This document shows positions 1 to 37,614 of a stretch of 64,000 nt of DNA, one piece after another; within the stretch, counting starts at the first letter, position 1; every line of letters starts with the position of its first letter. The notes below the pieces were generated by a model, which had not been told where the DNA came from, did not search any database, and saw only the letters and a list, made by a program, of their open reading frames with translations. Source of the DNA: Biscogniauxia marginata (lineage: Eukaryota; Ascomycota; Sordariomycetes; Xylariales; Xylariaceae); NCBI GenBank assembly GCA_022695795.1, contig MU404162.1:1-64000 (forward strand), written 5' to 3'. A program made the position numbers and the translations under genes.

Positions 1-126
1 CGGTTCGAATAATAATAATTATTAATTAATTTCAATGCGATATAAATAATTTTTAATAGTTAAAAGTATAATAACTATGAAATTTCGTTCGCGAGCTTGT
101 TTTATTTACTTACTTATATAATATGT
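1..126. mobile_element. 3' end of a TIR element, cut by the window edge
   Basis: Positions about 82-126 match the inverted terminus of the family also seen at 8719 and 1828 (a GAGCTTG core, then a run ending ATGT) and are followed by TA at 127-128. Positions 1-80 match 8590-8670 closely, so this is the right-hand part of a longer element whose left part lies upstream of the window. Confidence 0.5.
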
Positions 127-486
127 TATATATAATTATTATATATTAAAAGTCATTTATTTATATGTTATAACGGTATTTTATAGTTATTATGTTAATA
201 ACTTAAAAAAATTAATAATTTCACTTATAAAAGTGAAATTTAAAGCTTTAATCTTATTATATATAATAACTAGTCCTTTATAACATTATATTTATTAATT
301 AATATAAATATAACTAAATTATACATTTTAATAAAATTTAAAGGTTTAATTTAATTTTAATTAATTTATAAATAATTTAAAATAAGTTAATTAAATATTA
401 TATAAATATTAAAAAACTTTCTTTAAATTTATATTTATATAATAACTCGTTATATATTTATAAAAAACTTAAAATAAAGTTATATA

Positions 487-881
487 ACGTACCACACAAG
501 CTCGTGGACGAAATGGTTTTCCATACAAAGTCGACTTTTTCGAAAATTCATAACTTTACTTATAAAAATCGGAAAAGTCTCGGACCTTTTTTTCTAGTTA
601 TATAATTATATAGTTTAGTTAAAATAAAATAAAAAGTGAAAATATATAAAGAAATACGTAAAAAGGTCCGTGCGTTTTGTTATAATTTTAGTTTTTACGC
701 GTTTTCTTTTTGTGTTTTTTAATATTAATTTTTTGGAATTTTATTTTAATTAAACTATATAGTTATATAACTAGAAAAAAAGGTCCGAGACTTTTCCGAT
801 TTTTATAAGTAAAGTTATGAATTTTCGAAAAAGTCGACTTTGTATGGAAAACCATTTCGTCCACGAGCTTATGTGGTACGC
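487..881. mobile_element. Palindromic MITE-like element, 395 bp, flanked by TA
   Basis: Two arms of about 140 bp (487-630 and 738-881) are inverted copies that differ at only about four places, all transitions. They flank a spacer of about 110 bp. The element starts ACGTACCACA, ends TGTGGTACGC and lies between TA dinucleotides at 485-486 and 882-883. TA target duplication with long inverted repeats and no coding capacity fits a non-autonomous element of the Tc1/mariner-pogo superfamily; this is inference from termini, since no transposase is present. It is the best preserved copy in the window. Confidence 0.7.
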
Positions 882-1196
882 TAATTAAACTTTATAAAAA
901 GATAAATTATATTTTTAAATAAACAAAAGTTATTTTTTATATAAATTTTAATAATAATTCAAATTTAAATTTTATTTAAAGACATTTTATAAAATTTAAG
1001 TATATTAAAAAGAAATATAAAGTTAATAAATAATATTATTATAAAATAATATAATATATAAATAAGTAAATTATTAAAAATTTTATATAAAATTAAACTT
1101 TTTTCTAAAAATTTAATTAATTAATTTATATTTTAAAAATCCGATTTTATATAAAAAATTAAGCACTTTACTTATTTATATAATTAAATTTAAATA

Positions 1197-1828
1197 ATAT
1201 ATTTTATAAGTAAATAAATAAAATAAACTTATAAATGAAATGGGATTTTTTATATAAAATCGACCTTTTTAAAAAAAAATCATAACTTAACACGTAAAAA
1301 TCGGAAAAGTTTAAAACCTTTTTCTTTAATTATATAATTATATATAAATATTTTTCTTTAAAGTAATAACTCGTTAAAACTTTTAATAACTTTTTTAATA
1401 ATTATATTAATAATTAATAACTTAAATTAAATCCGTTAAATGCCTTATATTTATAAATAAGTTTTTTATAAAGTTTTTTATAATTACAATTATAATTATA
1501 ATCGTCGTTAATTATTAACGAAGTTATTAATAGTTTAATAAGTTATTACTTTTTAAAAAGATATTTATAATTTAACTAGAATTTTTTATTTAAAAACATA
1601 AAACAAAAACTTAAAAAAACTAAAAATTAAAAATATATAAACCTTTTTACCTATTTCTTTATATATTTAAGTTTACATTTTTTAATTAAACTATATAATT
1701 AAAGAAAAAAGTCTTATATTTTTCCGATTTTTATATGTTAAATTATAAAAGATTTTTAAAAAATCGATTTTATATAAAAAATTATTTTATTTGCGAGCTT
1801 ATTTCGTTTACTCGCTTATATAATACGT
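1197..1828. mobile_element. Degenerate copy of the palindromic TIR element
   Basis: The left arm (about 1197-1340) and the right arm (about 1690-1828) resemble the arms of the 487-881 element. The spacer motif is present in reverse orientation near 1645-1680, and extra AT-rich sequence separates the arms. The right end reads ATACGT followed by TA at 1829-1830. It is much more AT-biased than the 487-881 copy, so arm limits are approximate. Confidence 0.5.
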
Positions 1829-1839
1829 TAATTTAATTA

Positions 1840-2120
1840 AAAATAAAATAAAAATGTTAAAAAAAACGCGAAAAAAACTTAAAAGCTTAAAAATAAAATA
1901 TATATATTATAATAATATAAACTATTTTACCGTTTTTACGTATTTTTATTTCGATTTTTATTTTATTTTATATTTAATTAAACGAATTAATTATATAATT
2001 ATAAAAACCTTCCGTGATTTTCCGACTTTTATATATTAAGTTATTATTATTAAAAAAAAAAACCCTTGATTTTATATGAAATATTAAGTGTTTTACTTGT
2101 TTAAATAACTTATTAACTTA
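1840..2120. mobile_element. Partial copy of the same TIR element (spacer plus one arm)
   Basis: The segment directly after the 1197-1828 copy carries the spacer signature (an ACGCG-containing stretch, then a TTTTTACGTATTT-like motif) and one diverged arm near 1985-2120. No matching second arm was found. Ends are approximate. Confidence 0.35.
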
Positions 2121-2930
2121 TTATTACAAGGTGACTAGCCACGGGGTGGCTAGCTATATATAATAAGATTAAACCCTTAAATTTCATTTTTATAAGTGAA
2201 TCGTTAACCTTTTAAAGTTATTAGTATAACGGTTTATAAAGCACCGTTATAACACTTATAAATAACGTTACTTTATTTATTTATGTAATATATTATAAAT
2301 ATAATAATTATAAAATTATATTTTATTAAATTAAAAATTCATTTAAAAATTTATATTCTTTTTTAAAATATTTCAATAAAACTTAAGTTTTAAGTTAATT
2401 AATAATTAAAAATATTAAAACTTAAAAACTTAAATTATATTAAAATGTAATTTAATTTAATTTTATAACTTAATAGTTATAAGTTAATTATATATATATA
2501 TATATATTTAATTGTTTTTTATTTCGTTATTTTTTTAATAAATTTTATTTAAAACGTTTAATTTAATTTAATAATAAAAATTAACCTTTTTAATTAATTA
2601 TATAAATATAAAGTTTAATATAATTCAATTTATAAAAAATATAGTTTATAATAAATAAATAAATAATATTAAAAAGTAAAAATTATTTTATTTGAAATAT
2701 TAAATATAAGTTTTTTTATAAACTTTAATTTAAATAATTAATTTAAAATTATAAAGTTTATATAATAATTAAATTAAATTGAAAATTAAAAGGGTTTAAA
2801 TTATTTTAAAGAAAAAAACTTAATAAATCATTAGTTTTTTATATTATTAATTTAAATTAATTAATAATTAAATTATAACCTTGCTTATAATAGTTGTTTT
2901 AAAAATAATAATTATTAAGCTTTATAAACA

Positions 2931-3366
2931 TCATATCCCCGTACCTTTTCCCGCTATGGCAAGCTACATAAAATAGGTCGGGATAGGTCGGGTTGGGCTT
3001 TAATAAGACGGGGCCTGTTTTTACCATTTAAAATCTGTCTTTGTCGTCGTCGAAGCTAAGGATTCCTGCATATCATGTCTAGGCTAATAGCTATCGAGTA
3101 ATTGTAAACTGCTGGCAACTTAGGCTTCTAGAGCTGAAATTAGCAAACCGCGAAAACGGGGTAGCCTAGGATTTTGAACTTGTATGCGAATAAGAACAAT
3201 ATCGATTAAGTAAGGTCCTTTGCTTAAAGGTCCCCTTTCCCGATACACATAGATAAGGCCTAATGGGGTCATCAAAAGCTGGATTCGGCTAACTAATCAC
3301 TCTCAGGTAGGTAGTCTTAGTAGGGGGTCCTAAGTTTCTAATGTCGACACAGGGATAGCAATTATA
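2931..3366. other. Intergenic, normal GC; nothing recognised
   Basis: This is the transition from the AT-rich block to the 3' side of the F-box gene. I see no open frame of note, RNA gene or repeat; it probably includes the 3' UTR of the minus-strand F-box gene. Confidence 0.6.
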
Positions 3367-7216: not shown

Positions 7217-7552
7217 GATGTTTGCATGGAGCATATGTCAACTCCCTAGTTTGCTGGTCGCTTCTTTTCTTCACTTCTATGAAACTAGGCCTAGCCAGGT
7301 ATTTGGAGTTTGTATTGGCGTTTGGGGGCGGAGGGTGATGTCTTACCTCCATAGGGTGCAAGGATGGCTTCACTATCTCTCCGGATGGGCAGACTAATTT
7401 GGTTTTGGGTTGTTTGTTTTGTTCTGGTCAAAAAAAGGGGGGGAGATTGGTTTCATTCGTTTTACACTACTTTAGCTGTAAGGCTGCTTGTGATCCTATC
7501 TGTTTTTTAAAGCATGTGATTATACCGCAATAGTGATATTATTTTTTCTTTA
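7217..7552. other. 3' flank of the preceding gene; no gene
   Basis: Normal-GC sequence falling towards AT-rich, with a short G run near 7436-7443. It ends exactly at a TA dinucleotide (7551-7552) where the transposon-type terminus begins. Confidence 0.5.
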
Positions 7553-8719
7553 ACGTACTACACAAGCTCGTGAGCCACACAAGCGAGTAGGCCACTTGAT
7601 ATTATAAGTCCTATATATAAAGTGGCCTCGATGATAATGTATTATATATAATTAATAAAAACCTTAATTTTTATATTTATTATTATTATATTAATTTTAA
7701 TAATTATTTCGATTATAAATTTTATTTTATTAAAATTATATATATTTTTCTTTTAAATATTATATTTTATAATCGTATTATATATTAATTTATATTAATT
7801 TTAATATATATTTAAGTTTTTATAAAAAGCTTTTTAATTAATTATTTATTTATTTAAATACGTTTAAAAGGTTTTTTATTATTATATAAAATTAAAAGCT
7901 TAGTTTTATTTAACGCGTTTCGCGTTATAATTATATAATAAAATATTTATTATTTTAATAACGTAATAAAAACGAAAAAGAAATAACTAATTATTTAAAT
8001 TAATAATACGTTAAATAATTATAACTTCTTTATAAAATATAAATTTTCAGAAATTGTTAATAAGTACATATATAAGTAAAAGCAAATAACTAGATAATAA
8101 TATAAAATAATAAGAGGTGAAACAATGTGTATTAGTTGTTTAAAGTGGTAATTATCTACTTAAAGGGATAGGAGATGAGTTAACCCTTATATACACGCGG
8201 GGTTATATCTCTTATAAATTAGTTATATAACCATTAGAAATTTAATATAACAATTAATTACGTAAATATATTTTTAAATCGTCGTTATAATATAATATTA
8301 AGAATATTATAAATTTTTAATAACTAATAAAAATTAATATTTAAATAATATTATTTATAAATAATAATATAATTAATTTAAGTTTTAAATAATATTTTTA
8401 ATTATTAAATTAAATTAATTAATAATAAAAAAACTTAAAAAATAAAAATAAAATATATAATTATAATTTTACACGTTTTAAAAAAATAATAAATTTTTTA
8501 ATTTTTAATTAAATAATATAAATTACGTTTTAAAAAACTAAATACTTAATATAAAAAAAGTATTTAATTTTTAAAGTATAAAACTAAATAAAACGGTTTA
8601 AATAATAATAATTATTAATTAATTTCGATATAACGCAAATGATTTTTAATAATTAAAAGTATAATAACTATAAAATTTCGTTTACGAGCTTGTTTTGTTT
8701 ATTCGCTTATATAATATGT
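7553..8719. mobile_element. Degenerate TIR element, about 1.17 kb
   Basis: The left end at 7553 follows TA and reads ACGTACTACACAAGC. The right end at 8719 precedes TA and is the inverted counterpart, with the same GAGCTTG core as the ends at 126 and 1828. The interior is too AT-mutated to show coding sequence. The termini suggest a Tc1/mariner-pogo-like element, but pairing of these two ends as one insertion is inference. Confidence 0.45.
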
Positions 8720-9150
8720 TATTTTTTATATAAAATATAAAGTTTTAAATATTAAGTTTTATAATTAATTATATAAATATATTATTATTTCGCTTTTATA
8801 ATATTATATAAAAAACTTTATAAAATATTATTAATATATAATAATTAATTTTTAAATAACGATATTTATATTTAATTATATAAATTATTTAAGTTTTTAT
8901 TAATATTATTAGTTTTTAAAATAAATTTAATTTTATGCGTTTTAATAATAATAATAAATATATTATTTTTAAATTAATTAATGTAAATTACACATTAAAA
9001 AACTAAATACTTAATTTAAAAAAGATTTTTAATTTTTAAAATATAAAACTAAATAATATAATTCGAATAATAATAATAATAAATTAATTTTTAATAATTA
9101 AAAATGTAATAATTATGAAAATTAGTTTATTTACTTATATAGTTTTATAA
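8510..9150. repeat. Direct repeat, two copies of about 180-210 bp
   Basis: About 8510-8719 and about 8975-9150 share a series of landmarks in the same order: an AAAAAACTAAATACTTAAT stretch, then AAAACTAAATAA, an (AAT)n run and a TTTTTAATAATTAAAA motif. The same right half recurs at 1-126. This indicates a dispersed family rather than a single tandem duplication. Confidence 0.55.
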
Positions 9151-10140
9151 GGTGGTTTATATATTAAAGGTTTAAATGTAAATTTTTAATAGTTATATTA
9201 AAATTTTAAAACCACGTTTAATATAACTTTTAATCCTTTTTTTAATTTAATTAATTATTTAATTTAATAGTTTATTAATTTATAAGGTACGTTAATAATT
9301 ATTAAAAATTATTAAATTAAATTTAATAAAACCTTTTAATAAACCTTTTTAAAAATTTATATATTTTATTATAAATTTGATTTTCTCGTGTTTTATATAT
9401 ATATTAGTTTTTTATATATTACTATTAAATATAATTAAATTGATTAGTTGTTTAATTTAAAAAAGTCCGGTGTTTTTCTTTATTTATTTATATAAAATGT
9501 TATATATTAAAAATATATTAATAATAAAAGCTTAGTTTATAAAGTTTTAATAAAGCCTTTTTTATAAACTTAATATTTAATAATTATATATAACGTTATA
9601 CTTTTTATTATTTTATATTAATTATATATAAATATTACGATTTAATAATATTAATAATAAAATAATAAAGTTAAAAAATAATAAACCGGAAAACTTATAT
9701 ACATTTAAGTTATATAAATAAGTTTAATAATTATTAAATTTTTTTTCACTTTTAATATTTTTATTAATAAACTAAAAAATTAAACATTATTTTAAATCTT
9801 TTTATATTATTATAATTATAATTATTAAATTTATAAAAAAACTTTAATTAAAACGTATTATTTTATTATATTTTATATATATATTTATATTAATTAATTA
9901 TTTATTTATAAAAACGTTAATTATTAAGTTTTTAATTAAACATTAAAAAATTAAATTAAATTATAATTATAATTTTTATATTAAAAAATAAAATAAAATA
10001 AACATAATATATAGTTATATATATATAATTATAAATACTTATTTATTTATATGAATTTATATGTGTATTTATATAGCAAAACGGTGGACCTTATAAAGCC
10101 GTAATTATAATAAATTTTTAAAGAGGTGTACATAGTAGAC

Positions 10141-10677
10141 TTGCGCCTAGGAGCCTAATTTTGACTGCTACTAGTGACGAGATCAGGGCAAATTAATGCC
10201 TGCTTCTCCAAAGATTCCAACCCACTATTTTCAACTTCATCCGTCTTGCAAATCGCCTTCAGCAGTGCTAAATTTCCTCGAGTTGGTAATTCTATGCACC
10301 TATCGCATCTACTTTATTTTTGGTCTTGATTTTGATTTTTTCTTGTTCTCCCACCTTCCTCGGTGCATCCAAACCTAGAAGCATGCCGTTTCTCCGCCTG
10401 CACATTTCCTGAACAGGATTCCTTGTTCTCTCTCTTGTCTTCTCGTTCCTCGTCGACCTTGCAGCGGCAAAGTCGCGATTGACTTGACTAACGAACGATG
10501 GAAACGTCCCCTGCTAATGCGCCCTAACTAGCAATTTTTTTTTTGCTGACTGCGCTTATCTACTCTGCTGAAATCCCTTTGTCCCTCTACTGTCGTTTAC
10601 AACGACCACGACGACCACGACGACCACGACGACCGCTCCATCCTCTCCACCCTCTCGCGCATACGTCCTTCATCATC
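10141..10677 (+). promoter_or_regulatory. Upstream region of TFIIE-alpha gene with 9-bp repeat
   Basis: Normal-GC sequence between AT-rich block 2 and the TFA1 start. A short tandem repeat of the 9-bp unit ACGACCACG occupies about 10602-10633, followed by a CT-rich leader just before the ATG. The open frame at 10196-10378 looks like a chance frame. No canonical TATA box is obvious. Confidence 0.4.
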
Positions 10678-12600: not shown

Positions 12601-15600
12601 TCATACATACTTGCGGAGCTGTGTCGCTTGGTGTTAGTGCTTAAATCCTTATGGGCAAGAGAAGTAAATGGACAAACAGGGGGGGACGGCTTACATCAAG
12701 AGTTAATGTCCGCGAGCTGTTTACGTCCTGATCCCTGTATACACCGACTAAGCTCTCGCTGTCCTGGAACAGGCCCGTCTTCAAGCTGATTACGATGAAC
12801 TGCATACCGGGGCCTGCGTGGTCTCGGATGTAATTCTTGATCTTCTCGACGTTGGCGTTGTCCAGGGCGGCGTCGACCTCGTCGAGTACGAAGAAGGGAC
12901 TCGGCTGGTAGCTGTGAATGGCGAAGAGTAGGGCGAGCGCGGCCATGGTCTTCTCGCCACCGGATAGGTGCTCCATGTCACGAAACCGCTTGAGCGGCGG
13001 CATGGCGTGATACTTGATTCCCGAGAGGTACGGCTTGTCGGTGTCCTCCTCGATATCCAGATAGGCCTGGCCGCCGAGAGGATACTGATCCGACCGCGTC
13101 AGATCTTTGTAGACTTGAGAGATCTGTTCCTGGATGTGGCTGAAGGCCTTGTTGAAAAGTTCGAACCGTTGGGCTTTGATTTTGTCGAACTCGTCTTTGG
13201 CCTCCTTAAAGGACATTTTCGAATCTTCAAAATCCTTTTCCGTTGCCTTGAGCCTTGCCTCAACCACCTCGAGACGTTCCATCGCGCGCATGTTCGGATT
13301 TAGTTTCTCTAGTTCAGCTGTGAGAGATGAAATCTTTTCTTGCAGCTGGTCCTCAATGTTTTCGTCCCGGGGCTGATCAAGATTAGCCTTTGCACACACT
13401 AAGTTCAGGATGGACACTTACATGCTTGAGATCATCATCTAACCCATCAAAGTTGACCTCAATGCCGTAGTCGTTGAGAGCATCCTCCATGAGATCAACA
13501 TCATCGCCCTCGTCTACATCCATGGCGTCGGGGTCTTGATGTAAGAGATTATCCTCATTTGGAAGGTTGTCCAAAGATCCGTCTGAAAGCGGGATATTGA
13601 TTTGCTCTAACCGACATCGTCTTAGCAAGGCAAATTTACCAGCGCTGTTTTTCTGAACCTCTGTCTCTAGGGCATTAATGGCTTTTTGGCGGCCTTCAAT
13701 GTCTTTATTCCTCTTCTGAACGTCGGCCTTGGCGTTGTTAACCTTGTCGTTGCTTGCGGCAAGGTCCACCTTCAACTCATCTAGCTGCTCCTGGAGTGCA
13801 GCAAGTGTGTCCTGGTCGTTACCCATGGCTTCTTCAATTTGCCTCTTCTCTCTTTCGTATGACTTGATATCTTTAGACAGCCGCTTCAGCCTATCTTCTA
13901 GGCTGCGAACTCTGCTCTGGGTCTCATTGTGCCTAGATAGTTCCCAGCTTCGATTGCTCTCTAACCTTTGCCTTTGAAGGTCGAATTGTGTACGCTTTTC
14001 TTGCGCCTCCTGTTCCCAGCTGCCTTGTTGAGCTTCGTATGCTCGGATATCAGAATAACCAAGTCGCTTGCAAAAATCGGAGAAAATCTTATCCTCTACC
14101 TTGTCAATTGCAGCCTTGAACTTGTCAACTGACGAACGAGTCTTCTGCAGCTTGCTGTCTTCATCCTTGAACTTAGGCTGCCATTCTTTAAGTTGACGTT
14201 TTATGTGATCCAGCTCCTTCGTCTTACTGGACAAGTTCTGCTCGAAGGCCGCCAATTCGCTTCGCGCATATAATAGACGCTGCTCGAGTCCGGCCAATTC
14301 GTTTTGCAAAGTCTCCTCAGCATGGCCGCGGCGATCTGTCCTTGGCAATTTGTCAATCTCTTCTCCAAACTGATCTGCCATTTTGCGCAGGTTCTGAACG
14401 TCGTGTTCCTCGAAGCGGCGCTTGCCGCCCTTGTGATCGGGGCCGCGACCACCAGTCATAAGACCAGCCTTGTGGATAACAAAACCCTCCAAAGTGACCG
14501 CCTTGACTTGTATTCTGCGTTCGTAAGAGATATGTTTCGCAATGTCGAGGGTATCGCAGACGATCGAACTCCCGCAAGCATACGACATGGCACGCTCGAG
14601 CGTAGAATCAAAGTCGATAGTATCAATAGTCAGTCGCGCGCCAGGTATGCCCTTAACAGCAGTGTTCACAGCATTGACTTTGATGTTGTCTAACGGGATG
14701 AATGTCATTGGCGGAAAGCGCTGGTCCTTGAGATACTGTACACACTCAACACCAGTCTTCTCGCTATCAACAATGACGGAGTCGAAATCACGTCCAAGGG
14801 CAGTAATGACAGCCTCATCGAACTTCTTCTGCTTTGGCTTGCAGAGGTCACCTACGCGACCTTTAACGCCCGGGTAGAAGCGCTTCAAGGAGGTCACCAT
14901 TTCTTTGGTTCTCGCCTCCCTGTCATTCTGGCGCCTTCCGTCGTCGGCTTCGGCCAGTTTCTTCAAGACATCTAGCCGCTTCTCTTCAAGCTCTGTCCGT
15001 CGTTGGTTGGTTCTGACTCTTTCTGACTGGACCTGATTAAACTCCTTTTTCTTGGCGTCGATTTCGGCCGAGATCTGCTTCACCGCGGTCTGGGTACTAT
15101 CCCTTCGCTCCTGGATGGTGGCTAGCTCGGCTTCAAGCTTTTCCACTGCAGCTTGATAACCATCAACTTTGCCCTTGAGGCTGTTAACTGTAACCTCATC
15201 AGTTTTAAGCTGTCGGTTTAGATTGTCTAGTTTTGCCTGGTTCTCAGATGACTTGGCCATTGCCTGTGCTTTTAGGGAGTTGTATTCTTTCCGGTCGGCG
15301 TCACTGAGCTCCTTCCCCTGCTTCTTCATCGTCTCTTTCCATTGGTCCTCAAACTGCTTCTGGGCTTTTTGGACCGTCGCCAGATCTTTCTCGATCTTTG
15401 CAATCAGTTGAGCCTGCTCGTCGCGTTCCTTCTGGACACTGTCGATTCTCTTCCGGATAGCATCAGCCTGGCTAGTCGTTTGCTGTACCTTCTCCTCTAT
15501 CGGGACTAGGCCGTTTTCTTTCTCCTCCAATTCTTTCTCTTGCTGTCTAATTTGCCTCTCAACTCGGTGAACATTCTTTGCTGCCTCGACCTGTTCCTTG

Positions 15601-16632
15601 CGCGCAGCCTCCAGCTTCTTTTCAAAGGACTCGACATTACGACGAAACTCCTTCAGATTCTCCTGATGTTCCTGGATTTTAGCACTAGAATCATCCATTA
15701 CCTGCTGGAAATGGTAAAGTTTCCACAAGACATGTGTGACAATGGCACCGTCACGCTCCTCCGTCTTGCTCTGGAAATTTTCAGCTTCCTTTTTTTGCTC
15801 CTGATACTGCCTGATCTCGGAATTGATGCCGCGACGACGCTGAAGCTGGAAGCTGGTGTTCTCGGCGGCTTGGTCCGCTGCGCTCTGAAGCCTTTCGTAT
15901 TCCGCCTTGTATTCTAAGCTGCCGGATATTTGCTCTATCAAGCGGGTAAGATCTTGAGGAGACTGGGAAGCAATAGCTTCGACATCGCCCTGGAAGACAA
16001 GAAAGTTCCTGGCCTTGATAAGGATATTCTCGGCCTCGAGGGCCTCGTTATACTGTTGGGCGGTAACGACGCGGTCATTGATGCGGTATTCGCTCGAGCC
16101 TTGATTCGTGATGGCGCGCTTCCAGCGATGCTCGTCACCGACATCGTCCTCGTAGACGGCCATGACCCACGCATTCTTGGGATCTCCTCGGTTCGGTCTA
16201 TCTTGATCGTCGCCATTGATATGGTTGTTGGTATGGCCATTAGTGGTGGGGTCGGCGGAGCCATCGTCGTTGATCTTGGAGGTCTTGAGGACACGGCCGC
16301 GGTAGACCAAGTCCTTGAGGTGGGCTGATCGCAGATGCGAGGACTTGATACCTAGGACGAATGAGATAGCATCCATGCTATGCACAAGGGCAGGGGGTTA
16401 GCAAGACTTGTCGCGGGAAGATGGGAGTAGCTGAGACTGCAAGGACATACGAATTGGACTTGCCGGATCCATTGGGGCCGATGATGGAAGTAAAGTAAGA
16501 GTCGCCGAACAAGAGGGTATGGTGGCCCTTGTAGGACTTAAAGTCTAGAAAACGGTCAGTGGGCCTTCAAAAAGAGTTGGGGCTATACCGAATATACATA
16601 CTAAACAGCTCGAGGCGGATTAACTTGCCCAT
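12601..16632 (-). CDS. SMC1: Cohesin subunit SMC1
   Basis: Five exons on the minus strand, 16632-16602, 16544-16451, 16377-13422, 13387-12695 and 12618-12601, give 1263 aa, normal for fungal SMC1. The Walker A motif GPNGSGKS is at about 33-40 and is split from the body by two N-terminal introns. Coiled coils flank the hinge (about 538-690, with GVKGRVGDL, AVITALGRDFDSVIVD and GLMTGGRG). The ABC signature LSGGEKTMAALALL (about 1166) and Walker B FFVLDEVDAALDNANV follow. The last exon is 18 nt, encoding LRKYV after LTLD, the family's usual ending. SMC1 pairs with SMC3 and the kleisin in the cohesin ring that holds sister chromatids. The acidic insert VDEGDDVDLMED (about 1000-1015) is linker. 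Confidence 0.96.
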
Positions 16633-17864: not shown

Positions 17865-19685
17865 ATGGACCCTAAGCACCGCCTTCAAGCCTTCAACCAA
17901 AGCTTCCTGATGGCTGACATTCTGATTCTCAGGGTAGCCGAAGCTCTACAAAGAGTATCCTTTCGCAACGACATCCAGCGATTTCCCATCTGCACTCTAG
18001 CTGAAATGGCTGAACTTGTGACGCAGCCCGCCACCATACCAACTGCCAAGTCTGACGGTACCCAGACTGACGACGAGGCTGCTCTCACGCCAGACGATAC
18101 TGCCACGCCGTCCTTGAGCTCTTCGCCCCTCGAGAATGCCGTGTCCGATACTCCTAGAATGGAAGGTTCTTCCTCCAATGAGCGCCCACTGTCGAGGAAC
18201 CCGTCTTTCTCCAGCAGTAGTTCCTATCACGAAGATTGGGACTCTTTCCCCCCGTTAGACCGCCTCACCATCTTGGACCTACTTGACAACTTTGCCCTGC
18301 CACAGCAATTGGAGAAGATACAAAAAGGCATCTCAGCTCAGACAGAGAGGGTCCGTAGATCACGGGCTGCTCTTAAATCTAGGGGCCAGGAAGCCAGGGA
18401 ACGCATGGTCGAGGAATGGCGACGGCGAGTGCCCTCGGCGGACGAGCAGCTTGAAAGATACCGAAAACGCATGAAGCAGAGCGTTGAGAAACTGGGGACG
18501 CAATGGAACGATGCCAAGGTCATTACCATGCGCGAGAAGATATCTTTCATCTGCGGCGTCATGAACATCTTCATCAGCGGCTACCTGATAGGCGCATACC
18601 CAGAGTGGTTTCATCTCTGGTATACTATCCAACTGGTTTATTTTATGCCTATACGCTACTATACATACCATCGACGGGGTTATCATTATTTCCTGGCGGA
18701 TCTCTGTTATTTTGTCAACTTTTTGCTCTTCCTCAGTCTCTGGATCTTTCCCTCGTCGAAAAGACTGTTTGTTGCTGCTTACTGTCTCGCATTCGGCAAC
18801 AACGCTGTCGCAATCATCATGTGGCGGAACTCGCTCGTATTCCACGACTTCGACAAGGTCACGTCTCTATTTGTCCACATCATGCCGTGCGCTACGTTAC
18901 ATTGTGTGGTCCACCTATTCCCACCTGAGGATCAGCGCGAGCGGTTCCCAGCGCTGTGGACCATCAAGACATCTCCGCCGGGGTCTCCAACTGCATACGC
19001 TAATATTATCTCCATGCTCGCCTGGTCGACGATTCTGTATGCCATCTGGCAGCTTACATACTACTTCTTCATCACTGTCCGCCGGCGTGAGAAGATCGCT
19101 GCTGGCCGGCCCACCTCGTTTACTTGGCTGCGGCGCTCTTACTCGAAGGCTTGGATCGGGAAACTTGTACTTTCCCTACCCGACAGCCTACATGAACCAG
19201 CTTTCATGCTGATCCAGTACCTATATGCCGTACTGACTATGCTCCCGTGTCCGCTCTGGTTTTATAGCCGGTGGCTATCAGCCGGCTTCCTCATCGTGGT
19301 GTTTGCGTGGAGTGTTTACAATGGCTCGACATACTATATAGATGTGTTTGGCAAACGGTTCCAGAAAGAGCTAGAAGCAATGAAAGCCGAAGTAGCCAAG
19401 TGGCAGAGCACCCCCGACCTGATGCTTCATTCTCCTCTGATGACACCTGCACCCGGACCCGAAGGTGAAGGCAAAGAGCGTACGCTAAGTAACGCGGGTG
19501 GTGCAGAGAAGAACGGCCGGGTTGAGGATCCGGTCAGTGCGAGATGCCTAAGCGTGGATGAGATACCGTTACTTCAGGACGATCATTCACCAAGACTCAG
19601 TGACTCCAAGGAAAACGTGACTACTACCAGCGCCGATAGTGGCACGAAGGACGCCGCACGAGAAAGGAGAGCAATACCGGAGTAA
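17865..19685 (+). CDS. GPC1: Glycerophosphocholine acyltransferase (DUF2838 family)
   Basis: Single exon, 606 aa. Residues about 50-125 are a Ser/Thr-rich disordered region, and 150-210 a basic helical region. From about 222 comes the family core, starting REKISFICGVMNIFISGYLIG, with about eight hydrophobic segments to about residue 500. Conserved blocks include WFHLWYTIQLVYFMPIRYYTYHRRGYHYFLADLCYF (about 245-285), CLAFGNNAVAIIMWRNSLVFHD and HIMPCATLHCVVHLFP. This matches yeast Gpc1, an integral membrane enzyme that acylates glycerophosphocholine with acyl-CoA to lysophosphatidylcholine for phosphatidylcholine remodelling. The C-terminal 100 residues are disordered and probably cytosolic. The gene is convergent with CDH1. 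Confidence 0.9.
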   Translation: MDPKHRLQAFNQSFLMADILILRVAEALQRVSFRNDIQRFPICTLAEMAELVTQPATIPTAKSDGTQTDDEAALTPDDTATPSLSSSPLENAVSDTPRMEGSSSNERPLSRNPSFSSSSSYHEDWDSFPPLDRLTILDLLDNFALPQQLEKIQKGISAQTERVRRSRAALKSRGQEARERMVEEWRRRVPSADEQLERYRKRMKQSVEKLGTQWNDAKVITMREKISFICGVMNIFISGYLIGAYPEWFHLWYTIQLVYFMPIRYYTYHRRGYHYFLADLCYFVNFLLFLSLWIFPSSKRLFVAAYCLAFGNNAVAIIMWRNSLVFHDFDKVTSLFVHIMPCATLHCVVHLFPPEDQRERFPALWTIKTSPPGSPTAYANIISMLAWSTILYAIWQLTYYFFITVRRREKIAAGRPTSFTWLRRSYSKAWIGKLVLSLPDSLHEPAFMLIQYLYAVLTMLPCPLWFYSRWLSAGFLIVVFAWSVYNGSTYYIDVFGKRFQKELEAMKAEVAKWQSTPDLMLHSPLMTPAPGPEGEGKERTLSNAGGAEKNGRVEDPVSARCLSVDEIPLLQDDHSPRLSDSKENVTTTSADSGTKDAARERRAIPE

Positions 19686-20966: not shown

Positions 20967-22993
20967 TCACCGGATGACACCCCAATCTGCCAGTCGTCCC
21001 CCTCCACCGTCACTATCTTCCCTCTGGCCAGGCCGTCGCCCGAAGACAGTCCAAAACCGTAGTGTCTCATCACCAGCACCTGTCACAACCGTTCTACCAT
21101 CAGGACTCATCGCGAGATACAGCACCCGATAAGTGTGCCCCGTGAGACTGACCACTTGCGACATGGAAGGATATTTCCACACGACGATCTGGTTTTGACT
21201 GTACCCGTGGGTTGAGACGATTTCGTTTGAGTTCTTCGACCACGAGATGTTACATACTTGGCTGCCGGTGTCGACTTCGTTGATCACCGTTCCTCGAACC
21301 GTGTCGTGAAATATGATTCTTCTATCAGCAGTTCCGCCACCTGATGCGAGAAGACCGCGCTGGTGTGGAGACCAGGCGATAGCCTTAACAGCAGCAGTAT
21401 GGTCCGAGAATTTCCAGAGTGGAGTTTCTGAAAGTTTGTCCCAGACCATTAATTTGTTGTCATTACCTCCGCTCGCCAACTGACCATCTTCACAGTTCCA
21501 TTTAAGGCCACAGACCTCTTGTTTGTGCCCCATGAGCTTCCGCATCCATTGATCCGGTGCTCTCACGTCGCGATGGTATATCAACCGGTCCCGGGATCCG
21601 GATGTGAGAATGTGGGAGTTCCAGGCCAAAGATCCCACACGGGCCGTATGGCCAGTCATGGTTCTTAACCGCCTGGTTTTCTCGGCATCCCATATCTGCA
21701 CTAGTCCCTTCCCAGTTCCGATGGCTATGTGTGTCCCTTTCTGAATCCAGGATACGCTCGTGACAGTATCATCCTCCAGGGTGCAGAGCTTGTTCACCCG
21801 GCTTGTCTGGGCATTCCACATGTAGACGCTAGAGCCGAGGCCGACACCTAGGACATTGGCGCTGCCCCAGTCTACGAGATTCAAGTAGAAGTCGTCCGCC
21901 AATTCCGGGGCATCCAGCACTTTATATGGTACCTTACTCACAGCTCTAGGTTGCCGTCGGGGACTTAGAAGTAGTTGCTGGCTCCCAAAGCGAACTGGAG
22001 ATAAGCTGTAGATTTCTGATCGGGTGTCCAAATTAGGGCCATGCCGACTCTGTGGCGTCCTCGAAGGCGTTGGATGGCCAGCTACATTTGTATGGTGGCG
22101 TGGTGACATGTAGGAGAAAAGATTTTTATGCGGAGTTGACGGCGTGAAGCTTGAGGGTAAGGAAGGCGGGGGGTTATTTGGTGGCGTGTGTGACCGAGTA
22201 CCATCGTGAGTGCGGGCAGAGTGTGATGATCCTGGAAGGTTGGCATCCGGCGATAATGTAGGTGTTGTGGCTTGCGGTATTGTGTTTTCAAATAATTCGG
22301 CTCTCAGGAGAGTTGAGAAGGTTCGGTTTGCCTCCTCAGCTAGGAATCATTAGCACTCAGAGTAGACATGGATTCTACAATGCACATACTTTTCTGGAAA
22401 TGAAGTTCACCATGGGGCGTACGCTTCTTCTGGCGTGAGGGGGTCGCTGGTGAGCCCTCCTCATGCAACAGACTAAAACTGGCCTGGAGATCTTGGCCAG
22501 ACCGCGAGGGTATGAACCTGGGAAAATTAGTTCTTGTGCGCTATGAAGCTAAAGCAGGCATAGGAACGCTAGAAACGAGTCTGACGGAAGGCCGTCGAGG
22601 AGCCAGGCTGCATCATCCGGCCACCGGGAAGTAGGAATGTGACGGTGCCTCTACTGACCTGTCGCCATTTATCCGCTGCCGCTTCCTGCTCGGGCTGGCA
22701 CCCGGTGTGCTATCCCGCCTATCGGCAGAGAGCTCTCTCGACAAAGCTCGTGACAGGGACTCGGGATCAATGCCCCCGGTACTCGCCCTTTCCATAAAGC
22801 GACCACTATGCTTTGCACCCTTCGTACTGGCATTATCTAGGTTCTGCCTTGCTTGCAATCTACCTCGATCTGATGGTGGTGGTGGTGTGCCTAGCCTTGA
22901 AGGTGTTCGAACAGCGGGGCTTGTCGCATCATGAGCAGCGCGTTTGGTCGGGAGGGGCGCCGCCGCAATCGCGGGCTCCGCCTCTAAAGTCAT
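20967..22993 (-). CDS. CDH1: APC/C co-activator of the Cdh1/Fizzy-related family
   Basis: Three exons on the minus strand, 22993-22659, 22517-22390 and 22339-20967, give 611 aa. The APC/C-binding C-box, DRFIPSR (residues 111-117), is formed across intron 1. The Pro/Ser-rich N-terminal region holds many potential CDK sites (TPSR, SPSR, TPHK, SPRR), as in Cdh1, where phosphorylation blocks APC/C binding. Residues about 265-600 form a seven-bladed WD40 propeller starting VPYKVLDAPELADDFYLNLVDW, with HTARVGSLAWN and GHKQEVCGLKWN repeats. The C-terminal IR tail is GVIR. The Cdh1-type C-box and propeller sequence favour Cdh1 over Cdc20. It directs destruction of mitotic regulators at mitotic exit and in G1. 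Confidence 0.93.
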
Positions 22994-26693: not shown

Positions 26694-29056
26694 ATGTCGC
26701 AGGTTTTAGGGATCGCCCGGCCACGTCACGAACGATATCCCTCGCCACAACCCGAGATTCATGGTCGGCATAGCTCAGCGAGCTTTCGCTCACTAACATC
26801 ATTCCAGGGCGGCGCTGAGGACGAAGGCGGTGCTGAAATCCCGGATATTCCCAGAAGGCGGCTACGTATTTCAACAGCAGTTACGGATAATATCGCTCCT
26901 CCCGCAAACTTCAGAAAATTCAGCACAGCAAATACTAAGCTGTCACCCATGGATTACCGAACTGGCGACCACAGGCGCCCAGCAAGGTGAGCTTGGGGGA
27001 AATAATTTCCCTAGAGATACGTCGAAACATCTGACATGCCTAGTAGTGCTCAGAGCCACGTCGAGCATGATGCTTTTATGGCACAACCGGAACCTGAAGA
27101 ACCCCGGGATTTTGAGACAAGATCGCCTTCAACAGGTCCTAGGAGTATCCTGTCCCGGTCGACGAGATCACGAGCAAACTCCTCTACTTCTTCACTCGTG
27201 CCCACGCATGGCAGCGCTCTACCAGCATTGCAGTCAAAAGGTCCTTTAGACCACGATAGTCTCGAGCCCCTAGCTGAAGAAGAGATCGACCCTGCCTCTT
27301 TCGACCTGGTTGCTCCTACGCATGGATCAAGTTCACAGACCTCGCTGGAAACGCAGTCAGAGCTACTATTTTCTATAGACCACCTCAAGGTGATCTTCGA
27401 TGATCCGCTCTTGTTACAAAGATTTGCAAGCTTCCTCTACGCATCAAGACCAAGCTCGGTGCCACTCCTGATATACTACCTCGACGCCTTGAAAGCCCTG
27501 ACAGCAATCCGTTACGCAAACGCAATCTCCGACGGGTTAGTTCCTATCGAAGGACTCAGGTTCAGCGACGAGACGGCTGTCAAGACGGTCAACGAGTCGC
27601 TACTTGACAAGGCAAACCAAGCATTTGAGGCATTAGCCAGAGAGGACTTGCCGGCATACATCACGTATACTTGGATCCAGACGGTCAGCTTGACTGTCAA
27701 GAGGCGGATCGCAGACACCCTGCCAGTTCATCTCAGAGATCTCTCTGAGGGATTGGCAGAAACGTTCTGCCTGACAGACCCTTCAAGGCCAGATAACCCC
27801 ATCGTATTCGCAAGCGAAGGTATCTGTCTCAGCAACCCCGTCACGTGGTCGTCAAAATACTAATGCGTTCGGCAGAATTTCACAAGACGACTCAATATGG
27901 GATGGGATACGTGCTTGGGCGCAACTGTCGCTTCCTCCAAGGGCCGAAGACCAACCGGAATAGCGTAAGAAGGCTTCGAGAGAAGTTGGAAGCCGGCAAG
28001 GAACACTGCGAGACGTTCCTAAATTACCGACGTGACGGTTCGCCGTTTATGAATCTGCTAATGGTCGCGCCCCTTTACGACAGCCGTGGCGTCGTCCGGT
28101 ATCACATCGGCGCCCAGGTTGACGTCTCGGGCTTAGTCAAAGAATGCGCCGGTCTCGAGTCCTTTGGGCGTCTCGTAGCGCAAAGGTTTGCCGGGTTCGA
28201 AAGCGCAGAAGCAGGAGACGAAAGAGAAAAGGGGGAAGGCAGATATAATAAGGAAGAGGCACAAGAGGGAGGAGGAGGATTAAGCAAGAAGAGCGAGTTC
28301 TGCGCGCTCGCAGAGATGTTCAACCTACAGGAGCTTAAGACGGTCCGGCAGTCTGGCGGTGTTCTGTACCGGACGCGGCAGGAGGAGATGGGCGAAACGG
28401 AACACGGCGGCGCTAACTGGCAAAAGCCCCGCCTGGTGATCCGTGACGACGCGGCGACCGAGCGTCGGAAATCGGACCCTACGCTGCACACCGCGACGAT
28501 GTCGTCCGTGGCTGGGGGCCGCCTCAGCGGTGTATACGAGCATTACCTGTTGGTACGACCACACCCAAGCCTACGCATCCTGTTCGCGTCGCCATCACTA
28601 CGGGTGCCGGGGATACTGCAAAGCAGCTTCCTGGCGCGGATCGGTGGATCTCAGGGTGTACGCGAGGCCATCGAACAAGCCTTCGCCGACGGCAACGGCG
28701 TCACGGCCAAGGTACGCTGGATCACGGGGCGGGGGGACGTCGACAGCAACGGCGCCGGTGGTAAGGGTCGGTGGATTCACTGTACTCCCCTTCTGGGCGC
28801 CAACGGGGCCATCGGCGTCTGGATGGTCGTGCTCGTAGACGACGAGACCGAGGCCGCGCACCGGAGGACCCGCAACGCCCCGCCTGTAGAAGCACATATC
28901 GATAGCAGCCGTCGGAGGCAATTCGATGACGACAACATGAGCCTCGCCAGTTTTGCGGCCGCTGCCAATAGGGTGTTCGACGAGATGCCGGCTCCCCCCG
29001 TCCCCGCGCGTATTCGGCCCGCCAAGGCCTCCTATGAGGATACCGAAGTCGATTAG
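26694..29056 (+). CDS. RGS-LOV blue-light photoreceptor (BcLOV4-like)
   Basis: Three exons, 26694-26986, 27044-27819 and 27876-29056, encode 749 aa. The N-terminal 200 residues are Ser/Pro/Arg-rich and disordered. Residues about 205-335 resemble an RGS domain (LKVIFDDPLLLQRFASFLYASRPS, then LLIYYLDALKALTAIRYANAI). Residues about 345-460 are a LOV domain: NPIVFASEEFHKTT, then GRNCRFLQGP with the photoactive flavin-binding cysteine at about C374, and NYRRDGSPFMNLLMVAPLYD and YHIGAQVDVS. Key LOV residues Asn and Gln around the cysteine are present. The C-terminal region (460-749) is fungal-specific. RGS-LOV proteins such as Botrytis BcLOV4 bind anionic membrane lipids under blue light. The likely role is light-gated membrane recruitment acting on G-protein signalling; GAP activity here is unproven. 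Confidence 0.9.
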
Positions 29057-29264
29057 GGGGCAGAGAGCGCTGACTCGGAATTACTGAGTCTGAATTCCCT
29101 CATCCGGGGAAGCGCTGATGCTGTACGGAATATATTATCCCTACTCACCTGGCAAGTCTCAATGCACTATTGTTTCTCGGTGATGTGATCTACAGTACTC
29201 ACTTACTATTTATAACATGTTTTATAGGCGCGTCGCTCATTTTTCCCTAGGCGCTACGCTGTAA
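29057..29264. other. 3' flank of the RGS-LOV gene
   Basis: Short normal-GC 3' region before AT-rich block 3; nothing recognised beyond a likely 3' UTR. Confidence 0.4.
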
Positions 29265-30350
29265 ATATAGTAATTTAATCATAATATAATTAATTAATTA
29301 AATTACTTAGATTTTCTTTAATAAATATATTTATATTATTATTTATTAAAAATGATTTTTAAACCTATATATATAACGTTGTTTATAAGTTAATAAGTTA
29401 TATAAATAAATAAATAAATAAATTTAATTATTAAAAATTAATATGTTTATTATTATTTTTAAAACATGTAAAATTATAATTATATATAACGTACCATATA
29501 AGCGAGTAAACGAAACAAGCTCGCGAACGAAATGGTTTTTTATATAAAATCGACTTTTTCGAAATTTTATAACTTTACTTATAAAAATCGGAAAAATCTC
29601 AAACCATTTGTTCTAGTTATATAACTATATAGTTTAATTAAAATAAAATTCAAAAAATAAAAAGTGAAATATATAAAGAAATACGTAAAAAGGTCCGTGT
29701 ATTTTATTTTAATTTTAGTTTTTTCGCGTTTTTCTCGCGTCTCTTAAAATTAATTTTTTCGATTTTATTTTTAGTTAAACCTTATAATTATATAATTAAT
29801 AAAAAAGATCTAAGATTTTTACGATTTTTACGCGCAAAGTTATGAATTTTTGAAAAAGTCGATTTTATATAAAAAAATCAAGTGGCTCACTCACTTGTGT
29901 AGCCCACTCGCTTATAAGACACGTTATAATGATTTTAATAATATTAATTATTAATTTCATTTTAATATGATATAAATACTTTTTAATAATTAAAAAATTA
30001 ATATTTATAAAAATTTACTTATAAACTTGTTTTATTTACTTATTTATATAATATATTATAATTTTCATTATAAATAACTTTAATTATATATTTAAATATA
30101 TAAAATGATATAAAATGAATAATAAATAAAAAATTATTATTATTTAATTAAAATTAATAATTTTTATTATATTTTTTTAATTTTAAGTTTTTTAATTTTT
30201 CAATTTATATATAATTATAATAAAATATAATAAAATATAAAACTTATTATTTTAATTTCATTATATTATTAAATTAATTAAATCTTATTTAAATAATATA
30301 AGATAAAATAATAGCGTAAGGAGAATGTGCGTTATGCTTATAAAATACGT
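29265..30350. repeat. AT-rich, RIP-like repeat block 3
   Basis: About 1.1 kb of AT-rich DNA containing a TIR element (29489-29934). The right boundary at 30350 coincides with a transposon-type terminus: the inverted end reads ATACGT and is followed by TA at 30351-30352, after which GC returns to normal. No gene is present. Confidence 0.8.
29489..29934. mobile_element. Palindromic MITE-like element, 446 bp, flanked by TA
   Basis: Second good copy of the element at 487-881. The left end ACGTACCATATAAGCGAG follows TA at 29487-29488, and the right end ACGT precedes TA at 29935-29936. Arms of about 140 bp are inverted relative to each other but more diverged than in the 487-881 copy. The spacer shares a GAAATACGTAAAAAGGTCCG motif with that copy. 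Both ends carry an extra GCGAGTAAACGAAA-like segment missing from the first copy, so at least two subtypes exist. Confidence 0.65.
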
Positions 30351-31028
30351 TATATTGAATGCTGTGGGATATGGAAGGACTAGCTAGACTAAATCTATAT
30401 GGCAAATAAATCTTCGGGGTCTGCGTGTTTGTATTGCTGTCTAGTTGATAATATGGGCAGAGGGGGCTTCTTTCCTTTTCAATATATACCCGTCCCATTC
30501 TCGACTTCTGGTGTACTCTCTGTATCGCTGAAGGTTCTGTTGTTTGGGAAGCAATCCGAGGTTGATATTTTATAATAAGTTGTTGGAATCGCCTGCGTAT
30601 TTATCCCTTCTCATAGGCCATCGATGTATAAACACGACACCACTTTGTAAGGCAGGTTTCTACTCGACCGCAGACTTTGAAGTCTTGACTTTAAGTTCCG
30701 AAGAAACGGCAAGTTTCCTAATAAATGTTCCTTCATTGTTGCCTTGAAGTTTATCCCGGTGACTTTGTAAGAGCATGTTCATCATTGTAAACCATCCTCT
30801 TATCCTCTGAACCGAAATGTCTATCCACGGTAAAACCCCAACATTAACGCCATCTAGGCCTGTGGGTAAAACATCCACTGGGATGCGCACATGACGAGGA
30901 AATTTGAGTGTGTTTGGTGCTGTTGCATACACCGTCCACCTAATAACCAGCATCGTATTATGTATGCCCTCAGTCAAAAATTAAGGAAATATGCTTGCTT
31001 CATATGATTCATGCCCAAACCATAGCCA
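30351..31028. other. Intergenic with one unassigned ORF
   Basis: Normal-GC region between AT-rich block 3 and the 3' end of the coiled-coil gene. A 105-aa minus-strand frame at 30660-30977 is listed separately; nothing else is recognised. Confidence 0.4.
30660..30977 (-). CDS. Hypothetical small ORF, uncertain
   Basis: An open frame of 105 codons whose translation has balanced, protein-like composition (for example PRHVRIPVDVLPTGLDG and GVLPWIDISVQRIRGWF), unlike the simple-composition shadow frames nearby. I recognise no family. There is no obvious upstream exon, and it lies next to a transposon-rich block, so it could be a fragment of a decayed gene or chance. It is included for completeness only. 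Confidence 0.2.
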   Translation of the reverse strand: MTEGIHNTMLVIRWTVYATAPNTLKFPRHVRIPVDVLPTGLDGVNVGVLPWIDISVQRIRGWFTMMNMLLQSHRDKLQGNNEGTFIRKLAVSSELKVKTSKSAVE

Positions 31029-34440: not shown

Positions 34441-35008
34441 TGCGAAGTTTTTAGTCCGCACCGTGGCCTGCCAGCTGGCCACGGTTACCCTGCTACCCGA
34501 GGTACCTGCATGTACAGCTCCTGACATACATACATAGCTTCGACGCGGTCTACCCCTGTCGCAATGACCCTTTTCTATGGGGGAGATGTCGTCACTGTCA
34601 ATTGGTTCTGTCTCACTCCGTCTCGAAATCTGGGGGAAAGTGGATTTATGTTAACTAGGAACCTAGGTTAATTGATTCATTCCTCCTATCCTCCTCCTCA
34701 CCTCACCTCCCCTCCCCTCAAATCGCTTATTCGTGGTTAACTTCTCTTCAACCCCCCCAAACCCCCTTAAAACAGCAGCTTTTCTTTTATCTCGCGGCAT
34801 CCATTCCGTCCATGTTTATTGTGTATATCCATAGTCCAGCTTCAGGCTAGTTCCAGCTCTCGATATCCATCATTACTCTTCGACTTCGTGGTTCAGGCGT
34901 CGGTTGACTGTGCATCTTTTCCCACTTCATGGTAGCCTCCTTCTCCGCCCTATCTACTTGTCATTCAATGAGCAGCAATTATCTTTGGTTATTTCTCGAG
35001 TTGCAGCC
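34441..35008 (+). promoter_or_regulatory. Upstream region of glutaminase gene
   Basis: Begins with a GC-rich hairpin: ACCGTGGCC at 34460-34468 pairs with GGCCACGGT at 34477-34485 around an 8-nt loop. The rest is CT-rich (CCTCCTCCTCACCTCACC near 34690-34710), typical of a fungal promoter and leader. An in-frame upstream ATG at 34904 exists but precedes the signal-peptide start. Confidence 0.45.
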
Positions 35009-37614
35009 ATGAGACTACTCCTCTGGCCTGCCCTCGTGGCGCTGGCTGCCGCTCTTGTAGATGCCTCGACCTTGACTCCTCCTGTCTTACCGCTGATCGT
35101 CCGAAATCCATATCTGAGTATCTGGTTTTCGCATTCTCGTGATGCCCCTTACGAGAATTGGCCCATGTTTTGGACCGGAACGACGGTTGGCTTTGCCGTT
35201 ATGGCTTCTGTCCCGGAGACCAAAACTGTGTATCCTTTGCTTGGAAGGCCGCAAGATTTTCTGAAGAGAGAAGAGTCAAGGTACGGATGGCCTAGATGGC
35301 AATACACGGGTCCCCCGACTAATTTGCACTTAGCTACAAGATCTCATTTCCCCAGTACCACGGGGCTTCCTTTGACGCCTCCACGACGAACCTCACATAC
35401 ACGATCCAAGGTTCCGACTTGAAAATCGTCCTCTCCTTCTTATCTCCTGTAACCCCCACGTCGACCTTTAGACAGTCATTACCTGCTGGCTATCTTACAT
35501 TCTTTGTCGAGGGTTCGACCGACGTCAGCTTATACATTGACATTAACGGAGAATGGGTGAGCGGCAATCGAGATAATAAGATCCAGTGGCAGCTAGGAAC
35601 GAGAGAGTCTAGCACGGGCTCCGGGACCCATCTCAAGACCTGGAGCATCTCCCGCAGCCATGAGCAACTGCTGACCGAATTCTACGATCATGCCGAATGG
35701 GGAACTATTCATTTCTCTGCACCCGCCGATGTCGACCACCAATCCGGGGAGTCGCATCATCTACGCCATCTATTCGCGGAGTATGGTTCGTTAGAAAATC
35801 AGGTCGACGATGCTTATAGAGGTATATTTGAAGATGAACCCATCTTTGCCTTTTCCAAGACCTTCAAGCTGAGTAATCGAACCACTTCTACTGCGGACAT
35901 CGCCAGTGATAACGTGGTGTTTACCTTCGCCCTTACCCAAAATCCGGTGGTTCAGTTTGCTTCAGCCAGGGGCTTGACGCTGATGCGGCCCTTGTGGGCT
36001 TCATATTTCTTTAATGCTGAAGAGATGCTGCAATACCATTACGATGATTACAACACAGCAGTCTACTTGGCACGGGACTATTCTGCCCAGTTAGCTAAGG
36101 ATGCTTATGCTTCTGGCTCACAAGATTACCAGGATATCGCGGCCCTCTCGGCTCGCCAAGTGCTAGGGGCGACACAGTTCTCTGGGACTCCTGAGAGTCC
36201 GATCTTGTTTCTTAAGGAAATCTCGTCAAACGGCAACTTCCAGACGGTCGATGTCATATTCCCGGCCTTCCCATTCTTCCTGTATACTAACCCGCAGTGG
36301 CTAGCATATCTGCTAGAGCCTCTCCTTGAACACCAGATGAGTGGCCAGTATCCAAATGATTATAGTATGCACGATCTTGGGGCGCACTTCCCGAACGCAA
36401 CTGGACATAATGATGGCAAAGACGAGTATATGCCAGTCGAGGAGTGTGGCGACATGCTGATTATGGGCCTTGCGCTCGTGAACGCCTTGAAGGAAAACAC
36501 ACAGCCCGCGTTTGTCCAAGCTGGGTTACGAGAGACGGTGCCCCTCGGAGTGGGACCCACGAGAAGATCGTATTCTGTTGATGCTTATGGTATGGATCGT
36601 ACATGGGAGGATATCGGAACGACGGGCGAGAAAGCGGCGGTAAGGTGGGTAAACCGGTCGTATAAGCTGTGGAAGAAATGGACGGGATATCTCATACGCG
36701 AATCGCTCATCCCTGCGAACCAGCTGTGCACAGACGACTTCGCTGGTTGGCTAGCTAATCAGACAAACCTAGCACTTAAGGGCATCATTGGCATCAAGGC
36801 TATGAGCGAAATCGCCGACGTTGTTGGCGAGACAGCCGAAGCCAATTGGTACCGTAAGGTGGCAGATGAATTCATCGAAAAATGGCAGGACTTTGGAATC
36901 TCTCGAGACAAGACCCATGCGAAACTAGCTTATACCTGGTATGGGTCTTGGACGACGCTTTACAACTTGTTCGCCGACGCACTACTTTGCTTTCACCTAC
37001 CGGCGGCGAACTCTTCATCGTCCCCGGGGCCGAGTAGATTTTGGGACTCCAAGCAGACACCTCTGAGTGACGGACCAGCACACCTGATCAAATCCAAGAA
37101 CTTCATTCCTGACGAGATCTACCAAATGCAGAGCGATTGGTACCATGCAGTCTTGCAGAGATATGGATTGCCGTTGGATAGCCGTCACCTGTACACAAAG
37201 AGCGACTGGGAATTCTTTGCTGCTGCTGTGGCTAGCCAGAAGGTACGAACGGAGATCCTACAGCACGTGGCGACGTGGGTCAACGAGACGGTCACAGGTA
37301 AGAATACAAAGGCCAATCATGATGCTGAAGAGGAACAATAAGGGCGACTAACTAAACATGTTGGTTCAGATCGACCATTTACGGATTTATATGAAACAGA
37401 AGGTAGGGGAGAATTCCCGGGGGGAATTTACTTCATGGCTCGGCCAGTAGTTGGGGGCCACTTTGCCTTTCTTGCACTGGAAAGGGCTTGTGGAGGCAAG
37501 GCAACAAAGGGACTGAGATTCCTAGATGAAGTAGAGCCGGCAGAGATCAACGTGGAGCAAACCCTAAAGACGGAGCTGATGGAGAATCGGGTGGAGAGGG
37601 AATATGAACTATAA
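35009..37614 (+). CDS. gtaA: Secreted glutaminase A (GtaA family)
   Basis: Three exons, 35009-35280, 35334-37297 and 37370-37614, encode 826 aa. The start at 35009 was chosen because MRLLLWPALVALAAALVDAS is a signal peptide. Family blocks in order: PLIVRNPYLSIWFSHSRDAPYENWPMFWTG; SFPQYHGASFDASTTNLTYTIQGSDLKIVLSFLSP; DYSMHDLGAHFPNATGHNDGKDEYMPVEECGDMLIM; CTDDFAGWLANQTNLALKGIIGIKAM; LAYTWYGSWTTLYNLFADALL; and, after intron 2, FTDLYETEGRGE, MARPVVGGHFAFLAL. These match fungal glutaminase A (DUF4964/5127/4965/1793), which hydrolyses glutamine to glutamate and ammonia outside the cell. Many N-glycosylation sequons are present. If intron 2 were retained the protein would end early at GKNTKANHDAEEEQ. 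Confidence 0.92.

What the first reader, a model, noticed from the sequence alone, without database searches (positions are those of the whole stretch)
26694..29056. RGS-LOV photoreceptor with intact photoactive cysteine
One gene combines an RGS-like region (about 205-335) and a LOV domain whose GRNCRFLQGP motif keeps the flavin-reactive cysteine (about C374, codon 27926-27928). Botrytis BcLOV4 is a known RGS-LOV protein that binds anionic membrane lipids on blue light, so this copy is a natural variant of a light-controlled membrane-recruitment protein. Its long fungal-specific C-terminal region, carrying many basic residues, is uncharacterised.
Basis: partly seen in the sequence, partly recalled or inferred. 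Interest (0 to 1): 0.75.

Follow-up and report, generated by a model that had tools for sequence, protein, structure and literature searches.

The report
BcLOV3-type fungal blue-light receptor gene
This fungal gene encodes a blue-light sensor of a widespread but almost unstudied family (the Botrytis BcLOV3 type, probably not the membrane-binding BcLOV4 type), and the parts around its sensor look like a strongly altered G-protein-regulator-like bundle and a second sensor-like fold.

The parts
26694..26986 (+). exon 1: start codon and N-terminal tail (residues 1-98, last codon split)
   Evidence: same start in NCBI protein P0001
26987..27043 (+). intron 1 (57 nt, GT...AG); the NCBI protein implies an end at 27046
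   Evidence: in-frame stop if unspliced
27044..27819 (+). exon 2: rest of N-terminal tail, RGS-like bundle, start of LOV
27342..27743 (+). RGS-like helical bundle (residues 198-331; RGS/RH structural match over 205-311)
   Evidence: no sequence match
27820..27875 (+). intron 2 (56 nt, GT...AG, ACTAATG), splits the LOV domain
27876..29056 (+). exon 3: LOV core, linker, second PAS domain, tail, stop
27756..28144 (+). LOV domain (residues 336-446), interrupted by intron 2
27926..27928 (+). TGT codon of the photoactive cysteine C374 (C373 in the 748-aa form)
28286..28384 (+). conserved linker segment F.eL.eMf...EL.TVR..GG (residues 494-526), net charge +2, predicted helical at low confidence; candidate signal-transmitting or membrane-contact segment
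28526..28861 (+). second PAS/LOV-like domain without photoactive Cys (residues 574-685)

Best explanation
The gene encodes the Biscogniauxia marginata ortholog of BcLOV3 (probably LovA of Fusarium): a three-domain blue-light receptor, RGS-like bundle - LOV - PAS. Shown here: a LOV domain with C374 and the conserved N373, Q378, N406, N416, Q437 (749-aa numbering; that these contact the flavin is recalled LOV knowledge); predicted: an RGS-like fold before it and a PAS fold after it. Inferred: blue light makes the cysteinyl-flavin adduct; the change passes through the conserved linker and alters how the RGS-like bundle and PAS2 pack or bind partners. The RGS-like part probably binds (perhaps a G-alpha or another partner) rather than acting as a GAP, since its contact residues are replaced. 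Like bclov3 and lovA, the gene is probably itself light-induced through the white collar complex, so it would act as a secondary, light-made receptor.
Confidence: 0.7

Rival explanations
1. It is a BcLOV4-like RGS-LOV protein that moves to anionic membrane lipids on blue light.
For: Same domain order (RGS-like before LOV), intact Cys, a conserved segment after LOV. Paralogy with BcLOV4 is plausible.
Against: The named Botrytis match is BcLOV3, a separate gene from BcLOV4; C-terminal region net -3, linker segment net +2 and not polybasic; no lipid data for the BcLOV3 type in the passages seen. BcLOV4 itself was not compared.
Confidence: 0.13
2. The bundle before LOV is a working RGS GAP that turns off a G-alpha under light control.
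For: RGS-like fold; MoRgs5, an RGS-PAS/PAC protein, interacts with MoMagB (PMC3248559, passages) and its mutant has more cAMP according to PMC10056346 (passages).
Against: The equivalent of the Asn in RGS7's SSEN motif (printed) is V/I/L/M in 235 of 238 relatives, and no relative has Asn there or at the next column on either side; the equivalent of the Arg in DSYPR is Y/F in 239 of 239, with no Arg at the neighbouring columns. The model has only a 4-residue helix between the long helices at 45-72 and 93-109. The register comes from the motif, not from a residue-level structural alignment.
Confidence: 0.08
3. The bundle is a family-specific helical dimerisation or cap domain whose likeness to RGS is convergent.
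For: No RGS sequence match; Foldseek E only 0.99; helical bundles give middling Z by chance (note).
Confidence: 0.27

Closest known systems
BcLOV3 of Botrytis cinerea (P0101; Bcin10g03870) and probably LovA of Fusarium fujikuroi
   Same: 60% identity over 93% of the searched region; same blocks in the same order
   Different: Linker 8 residues longer than in BcLOV3 between LES and EF (49 against 41), different tails; LovA's own sequence was not identified among the hits
BcLOV4 / LovB / MoRgs5 (RGS-LOV type)
   Same: An RGS(-like) domain before a LOV domain
   Different: In papers the RGS of this type is recognised by sequence (Zt_LOV1 Pfam 4.2e-8) and BcLOV4 binds membranes; here RGS is not recognised by sequence; the two types are separate genes in Botrytis and Monilinia
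Plant and algal phototropin LOV domains
   Same: LOV domain, 4.2e-22 to a phototropin LOV
   Different: No kinase; one LOV with cysteine followed by a cysteine-less PAS
White Collar-1-like and Vivid-like genes of the same genome (C34, C60; named by eye)
   Same: LOV domain
   Different: LOV 40% and 31% identical; no bundle matched there

Membership tests
LOV blue-light receptors | PAS/LOV domain with the NCRFLQ cysteine and the conserved N, N, Q | tested here: met
   Pfam PAS_9 1.1e-14; C373, N405, N415, Q436 in the 748-aa numbering present and conserved
LOV blue-light receptors | binds flavin and forms the light adduct | not testable with these tools
   needs purified protein
BcLOV3/LovA type | similarity to BcLOV3 over bundle, LOV and C-terminal part | tested here: met
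   P0101 60% over 93% of residues 200-730, E 4.2e-182; P0095 matched to Bclov3 in print
BcLOV4-type RGS-LOV | RGS domain recognised by sequence profile | tested here: not met
   no RGS in P0001 at E<=10; not among the 25 families printed for 119 and 56 relatives
BcLOV4-type RGS-LOV | orthology to BcLOV4 | tested here: inconclusive
   indirect evidence against: the Botrytis match is BcLOV3 and BcLOV4 is a different gene; the BcLOV4 sequence itself was not obtained
BcLOV4-type RGS-LOV | polybasic amphipathic lipid-binding helix after LOV | tested here: inconclusive
   a conserved segment exists, net +2 over 33 residues; its best 18-mer has moment 0.356, the last of the 12 highest printed; BcLOV4's helix was not available
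RGS/RH fold | RGS helical topology | tested here: inconclusive
RGS GAP | G-alpha contact Asn and Arg (recalled as contacts) | tested here: not met
   V/I/L/M in 235 of 238 and Y/F in 239 of 239 at the equivalents, none in the adjacent columns; register inferred from the motif
PAS fold (C-terminal domain) | PAS topology | tested here: met

The most novel reading that the evidence does not exclude
The whole BcLOV3/LovA family, described in print as LOV proteins 'without recognizable domains', is a second, cryptic RGS-LOV class with the order RGS-like - LOV - PAS. It would be a sister of BcLOV4 in which the RGS part has lost its GAP residues and become a light-gated binding module; in some Hypoxylaceae the family has then lost its photoactive cysteine, giving natural light-blind or radical-signalling members.
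Probability: 0.42. Interest if true: 0.6.

Novelty: new member of a known kind. Interest (0 to 1): 0.4.

Why it matters
The BcLOV3/LovA type is common in Ascomycota (the 120 rows listed and the 120 include relatives from several classes) yet the papers I saw give it no output. Naming an RGS-like and a PAS module gives testable domain boundaries, warns against transferring BcLOV4's membrane behaviour to it, and offers natural cysteine-less relatives as controls for whether the photochemistry matters.

Tried and rejected
BcLOV4 sequence: two relative searches (2111 and 6823 hits) list only their best 120 rows each; no listed row is named BcLOV4. What the unlisted rows hold is unknown. The primary BcLOV4 papers asked for are not held. 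The third protein search went to RGS proteins for a profile.

A BcLOV4-type gene in this genome: looked for with PAS_9 (8 places), the protein (5 places, 3 of them this gene), PF00615 (6 places, 5 over the cut-off) and an NCRFLQ DNA pattern (4 places). No RGS place lies beside a LOV; one contig, C60, has both an RGS place and the VVD-like LOV, about 150 kb apart. The four pattern places are this gene, the WC-1-like gene, one zinc-cluster-like protein and one with no LOV context (by eye). The pattern misses the VVD-like gene, whose motif reads NCRFMQ, and the assembly may be incomplete.

PDB profile searches with A1 and A2 were dominated by the LOV columns and say nothing on the flanking domains. 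The slice profiles A6 and A7 found no RGS and no PAS chain, which counts against. Of 14 chosen C-terminal slices three (P0193, P0052, P0079) were dropped from A7 as misaligned or fused; the same three were left out of the profile files used.

An ApoC-I Pfam hit on the bundle (0.06 for P0001, 0.015 for the exon slice) was rejected as below its cut-off. GATC counts upstream (10 in 1 kb; window mean 4.6, maximum 12) were not taken as evidence of white-collar sites. The column-shuffle control also destroys helix periodicity and is therefore lenient.

Full report
What is there. The window lies in contig C108 of a 45.3-Mb genome. Its gene at 26694-29056 translates, after removal of two GT-AG introns of 57 and 56 nt, to 749 aa. 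A search of public proteins returns a 748-aa NCBI protein of Biscogniauxia marginata (F5X99DRAFT_397928, P0001), which equals, letter for letter, the alternative in which intron 1 ends at 27046 instead of 27043. Three exon matches in the genome cover its residues 1-748. The photoactive cysteine is residue 374 (codon 27926-27928), shortly after intron 2, which splits the LOV domain.

LOV domain. Pfam gives PAS_9 at 1.1e-14; four NCBIfam families match over the LOV domain at 3.1e-32 to 6.7e-30, all below their full-length cut-offs; PDB gives a phototropin LOV at 4.2e-22. In 239 collected relatives the cysteine is C in 233, S in 4, G in 1 and A in 1; N372 is N in 238 of 239, Q377 Q in 238 of 239, N405 N in 239 of 239, N415 N in 211 of 212, Q436 Q in 200 of 201 (748-aa numbering). 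The light-sensing part is ordinary and intact.

Which family. The named Botrytis relative is Bclov3 (P0101, 60% identity, 93% coverage of residues 200-730, E 4.2e-182). A Monilinia laxa paper (PMC7827745, passages) matches MlLOV3 = EYC80_002606 to Bcin10g03870 (Bclov3), and this accession is our hit P0095; it lists MlLOV4, 588 aa, 'regulator of G protein', matched to Bcin02g04390. The Fusarium review (PMC10056346, passages) separates LOV proteins with an RGS domain (LovB) from those 'without recognizable domains' (LovA). PMC12941744 (passages) tabulates BcLOV3 as short-LOV and BcLOV4 as RGS, LOV. PMC9512790 (passages) reports a Pfam RGS of 4.2e-8 in Zt_LOV1 and mentions none for Zt_LOV2. PMC7493669 (passages) likewise lists rgs-lov and lov-u as two Verticillium genes. 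That LovA equals the BcLOV3 type is my inference. The window gene thus belongs to the BcLOV3 type; BcLOV4 itself was not compared. No BcLOV4-type gene was found in the genome by four searches, with the limits told under Tried and rejected.

How it probably works. Light makes the flavin adduct at C374 (established LOV chemistry); the change passes through the linker to the flanking RGS-like and PAS2 domains and changes partner binding. This last step is inference. Relatives' genes are themselves light-induced through the white collar protein (bclov3: PMC10218500, passages, and light-induced also in PMC3886904, passages; lovA: PMC10056346), unlike bclov4 and lovB, which suggests a secondary receptor made in the light.

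A side finding. Alignment rows show GRNSRFLQ or GRNSCFLQ in Hypoxylon FL0890, FL0543 and FL1857, GRNSRFLQ in a metagenome protein (P0127), and GRNGRFLQ in Hypomontagnella monticulosa; P0178 (A) looks mis-modelled there. In a 30-row tree the three Ser sequences form one supported clade (100/100), sister to two cysteine-bearing species (98/92), and the Gly sequence branches outside these five (95/94). Without a regain this means two losses; P0127 was not in the tree, and each species rests on one sequence. That these genera are Hypoxylaceae is recalled. The listings (18 papers, 10 of 67 and 10 of 589) showed nothing on it; none of the papers first listed was opened.

Novelty. The gene is a new member of a known, neglected family. 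The architecture RGS-like - LOV - PAS was not described in the passages I saw, but most primary papers are not held, so this is not proof that it is unpublished.

Noticed in passing
P0056, P0078, P0090, P0108 (Hypoxylaceae), P0127 (metagenome): BcLOV3-type proteins that lack the photoactive cysteine (Ser or Gly instead); the tree implies two losses in Hypoxylaceae if the cysteine was not regained.
   Followed up: partly
window 1-3000, 7500-10500, 29200-30400: AT-rich blocks (GC 0.15-0.17) with TpA/ApT 1.08-1.18 and (CpA+TpG)/(ApC+GpT) 0.39-0.65, as after repeat-induced point mutation; the last begins about 150 bases behind the gene.
   Followed up: partly
[quoted passage not shown]
   Followed up: no
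P0062, P0054, P0237, P0057: Misleading database names in this family: 'hisactophilin c49s mutant phototropin phy3 fusion protein', 'Blue-light-activated histidine kinase 1', 'Nitrogen fixation negative regulator NifL', 'Phototropin-2'.
   Followed up: no
P0174, P0184, P0212: Three Xylaria/Nemania proteins form a long-branch group apart (branch 1.21): a second paralog or poor gene models.
   Followed up: no
window 12641-16397 (-), 17865-19685 (+), 20967-22346 (-), 34835-37341 (+), 54753-56942 (-), 60009-61391 (-): Neighbouring ORFs look by eye like SMC1, a GPC1-like membrane acyltransferase, a Cdh1-like WD40 protein, a secreted glutaminase-like protein, AP-1 gamma adaptin and an M14 carboxypeptidase (ORFs; names recalled, no search run).
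   Followed up: no
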